DNA from: Thermosynechococcus sichuanensis E542
GTDB taxonomy: Bacteria > Cyanobacteriota > Cyanobacteriia > Thermosynechococcales > Thermosynechococcaceae
DNA length: 64,000 bases
Assembly (NCBI RefSeq): GCF_003555505.1
Contig: NZ_CP032152.1
Coordinates: forward strand, 1,535,001 to 1,599,000
Direction: 5' to 3'
Of the stretch, positions 1 to 682 are shown piece by piece. The notes under the pieces were generated by a model, which was not told where the DNA came from, ran no database searches, and saw only the letters and a program-made list of their open reading frames with translations. Both the position numbers and the translations under genes were made by a program. The stretch's first letter is position 1. Each line of letters begins with the position of its first letter.

Positions 1-105
1 TCTGAAAAACTGTGGAAATCTTTTTATTCTTTTTCCACCGAGATAATAGCCTGTGGAAAAACCCCCTACTTTTTCCACAAGTTTTCCACAGGGGGGAAGT
101 GGCTC

Positions 106-136: not shown

Positions 137-201
137 TTTTCCACATTTCCACAGCCCCTGCTACTACTATAAGAATATTTAAATAAATTTAGTAGTAGTA
201 G
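137..201. other. Basal unwinding element: DnaA box, GC spacer, DnaA-trios, A/T-rich DUE
   Basis: In order on the + strand: DnaA boxes at 137-145 and 145-153, the GC-rich spacer GCCCCTG at 154-160, CTACTACTA at 161-169, then the A/T-rich run 170-189. Read on the opposite strand, CTACTACTA is three 3'-GAT-5' trinucleotides, the DnaA-trio repeat described in Bacillus subtilis as the site where DnaA extends on single-stranded DNA. A mirrored TAG x4 lies at 190-201, so 161-169 and 190-198 form a perfect 9-bp inverted repeat around the A/T-rich core. Order and spacing match the described basal unwinding system; activity is inferred. Confidence 0.75.
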
Positions 202-682
202 ATCCTAGATCCTAAAGAGACTAAAGTTTGATCAGAGAAAAATAAGGATGTGATGGGGGTAACTTGGGGTTAGTTTGAAGCTGGTTTGTTTAGAGCTTGA
301 GGAAATCTTGGACGAGAGGATTGTGGTACTGGAGAACTTTTAGGAAGACAAGAACAGAACGAAGGGTTGAGATGGCTAGAGGATCGGAACTTCTAAGTAC
401 TTGGGGAAAACCTTGGGGAATTTGGGGAAAACTGTGAAAAAGGATTTGAATTTAGGTTCAGAACGCTCTAATGGGGATCTGTTTACGCCGCGAAAAATTT
501 TTTTTGGCCTGAGAGTGGTCTAGAAGCTTCTAGAAGGTGGGCGATCGCCCCAGTGAGTAGGTTTTATCGTTGAGGGGATTTAGCTGCCCATAGAGGCGAT
601 TTTATGAGGGGTTGTCTAGAAAACCTTGGGGCAGCCGTTTGCCGATAGGATAATCCAAGCAACTATCGTCCTCAAACTGGCC
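202..682. other. Non-coding stretch between the origin and the ArsA-like gene
   Basis: About 480 bases with no convincing gene. It contains a tandem GATCCTA pair just after the origin, one imperfect DnaA box (TGTGAAAAA at 433-441) and a HIP1 octamer near 541. I see no tRNA, no clear riboswitch and no obvious terminator. Promoter elements for the gene starting at 683 presumably lie in the last 100 bases but none is clear. Confidence 0.5.

What the first reader, a model, noticed from the sequence alone, without database searches (positions are those of the whole stretch)
137..201. Cyanobacterial origin with a Bacillus-type basal unwinding element and mirrored DnaA-trios
The order DnaA box (145-153), GC-rich heptamer (154-160), CTACTACTA (161-169), then A/T-rich DNA is that of the basal unwinding system described for Bacillus subtilis, where 3'-GAT-5'-type trinucleotides bind the DnaA filament. 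Here a second trio block (TAG x4, 190-201) lies on the opposite strand beyond the A/T core, so the core is enclosed by trios on both strands and by a perfect 9-bp inverted repeat. A mirrored arrangement could open the duplex from both sides or form a cruciform.
Basis: partly seen in the sequence, partly recalled or inferred. Interest (0 to 1): 0.8.

Follow-up and report, generated by a model that had tools for sequence, protein, structure and literature searches.

The report
Replication origin with mirrored DnaA-trio blocks
This is the probable start site for copying a hot-spring cyanobacterium's chromosome, and its melting zone is flanked on both sides, on opposite strands, by the short repeats that the DnaA starter protein grips, a conserved two-sided layout that may help load the two copying machines.

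Summary
At 137-201 lie tandem DnaA boxes, a GC spacer, four DnaA-trios on the bottom strand (CTG CTA CTA CTA, 158-169), a 20-bp AT-rich core and four trios on the top strand (TAG x4, 190-201).

All 11 Thermosynechococcus genomes keep both trio blocks (98.5% and 97.3% mean pairwise identity). The DNA on either side of the right block has drifted to 36-48%, and the core varies from 18 to 28 bp.

Outside the genus, mirrored trio-like repeats sit 15-36 bp past the left trios in about 15 of 47 cyanobacterial genera (2.8 after shuffling). Mirrored origins also occur beside dnaA in several other phyla; a few carry an inverted DnaA box too.

Three corrections. No inverted DnaA box adjoins the right block, so this is not two full unwinding modules. 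The genome shows no significant GC-skew polarity, so that test is uninformative. dnaN and dnaA lie 246 and 468 kb away.

Most likely DnaA opens the left side as in Bacillus, then engages the right trios on the other strand. A role in loading the second helicase is a hypothesis. A cyanobacterial unwinding module was already shown in Synechococcus elongatus; I found no description of the mirrored block.

The parts
11..19 (-). DnaA box, 1 mismatch (ATTTCCACA)
   Evidence: kept as a 0-1 mismatch box in all 11 genomes
31..39 (+). weak DnaA box, 1 mismatch (TTTTCCACC)
   Evidence: kept in only some of the relatives
52..60 (-). DnaA box TTTTCCACA
   Evidence: conserved in 11/11
71..79 (+). DnaA box TTTTCCACA
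   Evidence: conserved in 11/11
82..90 (+). DnaA box TTTTCCACA
   Evidence: conserved in 11/11
137..145 (+). upstream box of the tandem BUS pair, TTTTCCACA
   Evidence: conserved in 11/11
145..153 (+). trio-proximal box of the tandem BUS pair, (A)TTTCCACA
   Evidence: conserved in 11/11
154..157 (.). GC-rich spacer GCCC between box and trios
   Evidence: GCCC, GGCC, GCGC or GCAC in the 11 genomes
158..169 (-). left DnaA-trio block, four trios read 3'-GAC GAT GAT GAT-5' on the bottom strand
   Evidence: 98.5% mean pairwise identity in 11 genomes; same module in 107 of 390 cyanobacterial genomes by strict pattern
170..189 (.). AT-rich core TAAGAATATTTAAATAAATT, presumed melting zone
   Evidence: 18-28 bp in relatives, sequence drifts
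190..201 (+). right, mirrored DnaA-trio block, TAG x4 on the top strand
   Evidence: 97.3% mean pairwise identity in 11 genomes against 46% for the 8 bp before it and 48% and 36% after it; recurs in other genera
201..211 (.). two GATC sites (201-204, 208-211) abutting the right block
   Evidence: two or more GATC at this place in 10/11 genomes, against 1% of 32-mers in the window
402..441 (-). three weak inverted DnaA-box-like sites (402-410, 423-431, 433-441)
   Evidence: no such site in G001 and only one in G008, so not a required partner of the right block

Best explanation
The locus is the chromosomal origin (oriC) of a Thermosynechococcus. Its left half is a standard basal unwinding system: DnaA binds the box cluster, the tandem boxes 137-153 load a DnaA filament onto the bottom-strand trios 158-169, and the AT-rich core 170-189 melts. 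The right block 190-201 is a second, selected set of DnaA-trios on the opposite strand at the far end of the core. Once the core is open, DnaA protomers, probably supplied by looping from the left box cluster because there is no inverted box on the right, bind the exposed top-strand TAG repeats. This holds both strands apart at both ends of the bubble. By symmetry it also offers DnaA on the second strand, which would let the second replicative helicase be placed for the opposite direction. Shown: anatomy, conservation, position-locking and taxonomic recurrence. Inferred from other species: DnaA loading and melting at the left. Hypothesis: DnaA binding at the right block, and second-helicase loading (the last step perhaps 1 in 3).
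For: BUS anatomy. Four perfect TTTTCCACA boxes within 95 bp, against 46 in 2.65 Mb. dnaA intact with all domains. Both trio blocks are kept in 11/11 genomes while the flanks drift, with the same gene neighbours. Right-block repeats are position-locked at 15-36 bp past the left trios in other cyanobacteria: [TA]AG[TA]AG in 14.9 of 47 genera against 2.8 mono-shuffled (largest 9); TAGTAG in 5 against 0.4; background at 0-16 and 30-46; GATGAT and CT[TA]CT[TA] none. TAGTAG 6.25 of 48 genera against 1.11 in dinucleotide shuffles, 0/300. Right blocks elsewhere vary as AAG/TAG, which the DnaA-trio consensus allows and base pairing with CTA does not. Mirrored modules beside dnaA in Thermus, Binatia, Acidobacteria and others; a dnaA - BUS - inverted BUS - dnaN arrangement in an Atribacteria contig, L107. 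S. elongatus DnaA unwinds its own BUS scaffold in vitro (PMC8287927). Single-stranded TAG repeats are essential for DnaA binding in Thermotoga maritima (PMC10316083). No DnaD-type match over cut-off and no separate DnaC/DnaI-type loader, but DciA present, so the Bacillus DnaD route to the second helicase is apparently missing.
Against: No inverted DnaA box adjoins the right block, so the known guide for filament loading is absent there. No experimental evidence exists here that DnaA binds the right block or that this origin fires. GC skew does not mark it, and some cyanobacteria replicate independently of DnaA (PMC7198777). Only about a third of cyanobacterial genera with a strict left module show a right block, so it cannot be universally needed. 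The within-genus identities were anchored on the block itself, which flatters the block relative to its flanks.
Confidence: 0.55

Rival explanations
1. The two blocks are kept because they pair: after opening, each strand folds into a 12-bp hairpin, or the duplex extrudes a cruciform, which blocks re-annealing or marks a primase/helicase site.
For: Nearly perfect 12-bp complementarity in this genus; predicted hairpin in every genome, -6.1 to -10.8 kcal/mol at 37 C and -1.7 to -5.0 at 55 C.
Against: Weak at growth temperature. The own left block carries CTG with no matching change on the right. Right blocks vary in length (4-5 trios) while left ones do not. In other genera right blocks are often AAG/TAG runs that cannot pair with CTA.
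Confidence: 0.15
2. The right block, with the paired GATC sites next to it, is a binding site for another protein (a methylation-sensitive or sequestration factor, or a transcription factor of the downstream ArsA-like gene) rather than for DnaA.
For: Paired GATC sites follow the block in 10/11 genomes, and a D12-class (Dam-like) adenine methyltransferase gene is present.
Against: The block has the DnaA-trio sequence in the mirrored register. It recurs at the same place in genera without that GATC pair and with other flanks and in other phyla.
Confidence: 0.15
3. The right block is a remnant: an ancestral fully mirrored BUS that lost its right-hand DnaA box and now only keeps trios by slow decay or repeat turnover.
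For: Complete mirrored modules with an inverted box exist elsewhere, such as L107, and none is left here.
Against: Identity of the block (97%) against 36-48% for its surroundings across the genus is not what decay looks like.
Confidence: 0.05
4. The locus is a DnaA-box cluster and fossil origin that no longer starts replication; DnaA there serves gene regulation or titration.
For: No significant GC-skew polarity; dnaA and dnaN far away; DnaA-independent multi-origin replication is known in Synechocystis and Nostoc (PMC7198777).
Against: Origin anatomy under strong conservation in 11/11 genomes, dnaA intact, same neighbours. The T. elongatus BP-1 origin predicted in the literature also has 12 boxes and lies between genes of unknown function (PMC4674748).
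Confidence: 0.1

Closest known systems
Basal unwinding system (BUS) of Bacillus subtilis oriC; tested in S. elongatus, H. pylori, D. radiodurans and others (PMC8287927)
   Same: Tandem DnaA boxes, short GC-rich spacer, repeated 3'-GAT-5' trios, AT-rich DNA, in that order and spacing
   Different: A second trio block on the opposite strand at the far end of the AT core; none is described for the BUS in the papers read
Thermotoga maritima oriC with eTrio (PMC10316083)
   Same: Single-stranded TAG repeats bound by DnaA and essential for opening
   Different: As I read the paper, eTrio lies on the same strand as the DnaA-trios, further from the boxes; here the extra block is on the opposite strand
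DnaD recognition element of B. subtilis (PMC10201434)
   Same: A strand-specific element proposed to bring the second helicase to the strand without DnaA-trios
   Different: It lies opposite the trios and is read by DnaD; no DnaD-type match over the cut-off was found here, and the element here lies at the other end of the core with a DnaA-trio sequence
Predicted oriC of T. elongatus BP-1 (DoriC; PMC4674748)
   Same: 12 DnaA boxes, TTTTCCACA-type, not beside dnaN; the matching locus in G010, whose 2,593,857-bp chromosome equals the BP-1 length I recall, also gives 12
   Different: The mirrored trios are not mentioned in the passages read

Membership tests
Bacterial oriC | Cluster of DnaA boxes in an intergenic region | tested here: met
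Bacterial oriC | GC-skew inversion at the locus | tested here: inconclusive
   1.26 Mb sampled; best split anywhere 0.012, below the 95% null of 0.0135; this locus -0.002
Bacterial oriC | Beside dnaA or dnaN (usual, not strictly defining) | tested here: not met
   dnaN 246 kb and dnaA 468 kb away; placement away from dnaN is published for T. elongatus BP-1
Bacterial oriC | Replication starts there | not testable with these tools
   Needs marker-frequency sequencing or labelling
Basal unwinding system (BUS) | DnaA box within 16 bp of at least three trios | tested here: met
   Box ends 153, trios start 158; 11/11 genomes
Basal unwinding system (BUS) | DnaA-dependent strand opening needing both boxes and trios | not testable with these tools
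   Shown for S. elongatus in PMC8287927, not for this species
Complete mirrored (double) BUS | Second trio block on the opposite strand | tested here: met
Complete mirrored (double) BUS | Inverted DnaA box beside the second block | tested here: not met
   No inverted box with up to 1 mismatch within 150 bp to the right in 11 genomes
DnaD recognition element system | DnaD present | tested here: not met
   Best match E 0.027, below the family cut-off

The most novel reading that the evidence does not exclude
Many bacterial origins, in cyanobacteria and several other phyla, are two-sided: DnaA engages trios on both strands at the two ends of the melted core, and this symmetry is how bacteria without DnaD place two helicases on opposite strands for bidirectional replication.
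Probability: 0.3. Interest if true: 0.88.

Novelty: new variant of a known kind. Interest (0 to 1): 0.62.

Why it matters
How the second helicase is put on the strand that lacks DnaA-trios is stated as an open question in recent work (PMC10201434; [quoted passage not shown] A conserved trio block on exactly that strand, at the far end of the melted core, is a concrete candidate element. A mutation of 12 bases would test it, in a genus with cultured laboratory strains.

Tried and rejected
GC skew as an origin marker: uninformative in this genome.

A right-hand DnaA-box platform: scanned in 11 genomes and not found. The weak TGGGGAAAA-type sites 200 bp away are absent in G001 and only one remains in G008, so they are rejected as required partners.

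The GC-rich inverted repeat at 107-127 as part of the machine: arms not conserved in most relatives.

Hairpin as the sole reason for conservation: see rivals.

The only internal check is that 10 of 54 non-Thermosynechococcus hits continue with a third in-register TAG.

5 kb upstream of the window is masked.

Virus scan: mostly chance matches, with a few true modules.

Full report
What is there. The window is bases 1,535,001-1,599,000 of a single 2,650,294-bp contig. Contig lengths and names of close relatives (G004 = NZ_DVEH01000054.1, G005, G009) show the genus to be Thermosynechococcus. The first 230 bases hold DnaA boxes at 11-19, 31-39, 52-60, 71-79, 82-90, 137-145 and 145-153, then GCCC, CTG CTA CTA CTA, a 20-bp AT-rich core and TAG x4. 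TTTTCCACA occurs 46 times in the genome; four of these fall within 95 bp here. The arrangement CTACTACTA-N10..40-TAGTAGTAG is unique in the window and absent from 100 shuffles.

The left block has four trios, not three: the 'GC-rich heptamer' is a 4-bp spacer plus CTG, which is CTA in the ten other genomes. The boxes form a tandem pair. There is no inverted box beside the right block. dnaN (1,780,884) and dnaA (1,066,678) lie far away. A published prediction for T. elongatus BP-1 describes an origin with 12 boxes between genes of unknown function (PMC4674748); the matching locus in G010 also gives 12.

Conservation. All 11 genomes of the genus have the locus, with the ArsA-like gene on the right in every relative and the same upstream gene in 9 of 10 (the own upstream stretch is masked). 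Mean pairwise identity is 0.985 for the left trios, 0.973 for the right trios, 0.775 for the first 8 core bases, 0.459 for the last 8 core bases, and 0.484 and 0.360 for the 8 and the next 30 bases after the right block. These are ungapped and anchored on the blocks, which favours the blocks, but the right block is found at the right place in 11/11. The core varies from 18 to 28 bp.

Beyond the genus. In 390 cyanobacterial genomes the strict mirrored pattern was found in 22, including two other genera of the family and several other families; the reversed control pattern gave 2 matches. With the left module alone as denominator, TAGTAG lies downstream in 6.25 of 48 genera, against 1.11 in dinucleotide shuffles and 0/300 as high; one of these genera, G132, entered through the mirrored pattern. 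Without it, and resolved by distance, [TA]AG[TA]AG lies 15-36 bp past the left trios in 14.9 of 47 genera against 2.8 (largest 9 of 500 shuffles). It is at background closer or further out, and reversed or complementary hexamers are not enriched to that degree. The sites were typed over from the output with near-duplicates left out. A scan of 84,980 species for a stricter mirrored pattern gave 57 stretches. Nearly all are true origin modules with tandem boxes, and 39 carry dnaA in the same locus, mostly about 1.5 kb away. They include Thermus, Binatia, Acidobacteria, Clostridia and others. L107 (Atribacteria) has a complete inverted module with its own DnaA box between dnaA and dnaN. I have no denominator outside cyanobacteria, so there I claim occurrence, not enrichment.

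Mechanism. The left module is by anatomy a BUS, and S. elongatus DnaA opens its own BUS scaffold in vitro, depending on boxes and trios (PMC8287927). DnaA of this genome has all its domains. For the right block the sequence is that of DnaA-trios in the mirrored register on the top strand. In T. maritima three single-stranded TAG repeats are essential for binding by the DnaA complex (PMC10316083). With no inverted box on the right, the likeliest route is that DnaA from the left cluster captures the exposed top strand after melting. In B. subtilis the second helicase is proposed to come through DnaD and an element opposite the trios (PMC10201434). This genome has DciA, no DnaD match over the cut-off, and no separate DnaC/DnaI-type match over the cut-off. 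A symmetrical DnaA site on the second strand would solve the same problem; this step is a hypothesis.

Hairpin alternative. The strand can fold into a 12-bp stem, at -1.7 to -5.0 kcal/mol at 55 C with DNA parameters. Pairing alone does not explain right blocks of AAG/TAG in other genera, or the uncompensated CTG here.

Novelty. The origin as such, and the BUS in cyanobacteria, are known. I found no paper on trios mirrored on the opposite strand (open-access library only). I therefore file it as a new variant of a known kind.

Noticed in passing
201-211, and the same place in 10 of 11 relatives: Two GATC sites 7-9 bp apart abut the right trio block in nearly all genomes while the bases around them drift; only 1% of 32-mers in the window hold two. 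The genome has a D12-class adenine methyltransferase. Possible methylation control of the origin.
   Followed up: partly
L107:1186-1245: Atribacteria contig with a complete palindromic double unwinding module (inverted DnaA box included) between dnaA and dnaN.
   Followed up: partly
Perhaps a phage that borrows host DnaA.
   Followed up: partly
L098 and L105 (Ktedonobacteria), L069 and L071 (Rhodothermales): Mirrored trios followed by an inverted TGTGGATA box within 8-23 bp.
   Followed up: no
107-127: Perfect 8-bp GC-rich inverted repeat AAACCCGC-N5-GCGGGTTT inside the box cluster; not conserved in most relatives.
   Followed up: partly
whole genome: No significant GC-skew polarity in the sampled half of the chromosome, despite a well-kept DnaA-box origin.
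   Followed up: partly
683-1780: Right-hand neighbour in all genomes of the genus is an ArsA-type ATPase with an HSP20-like tail.
   Followed up: no
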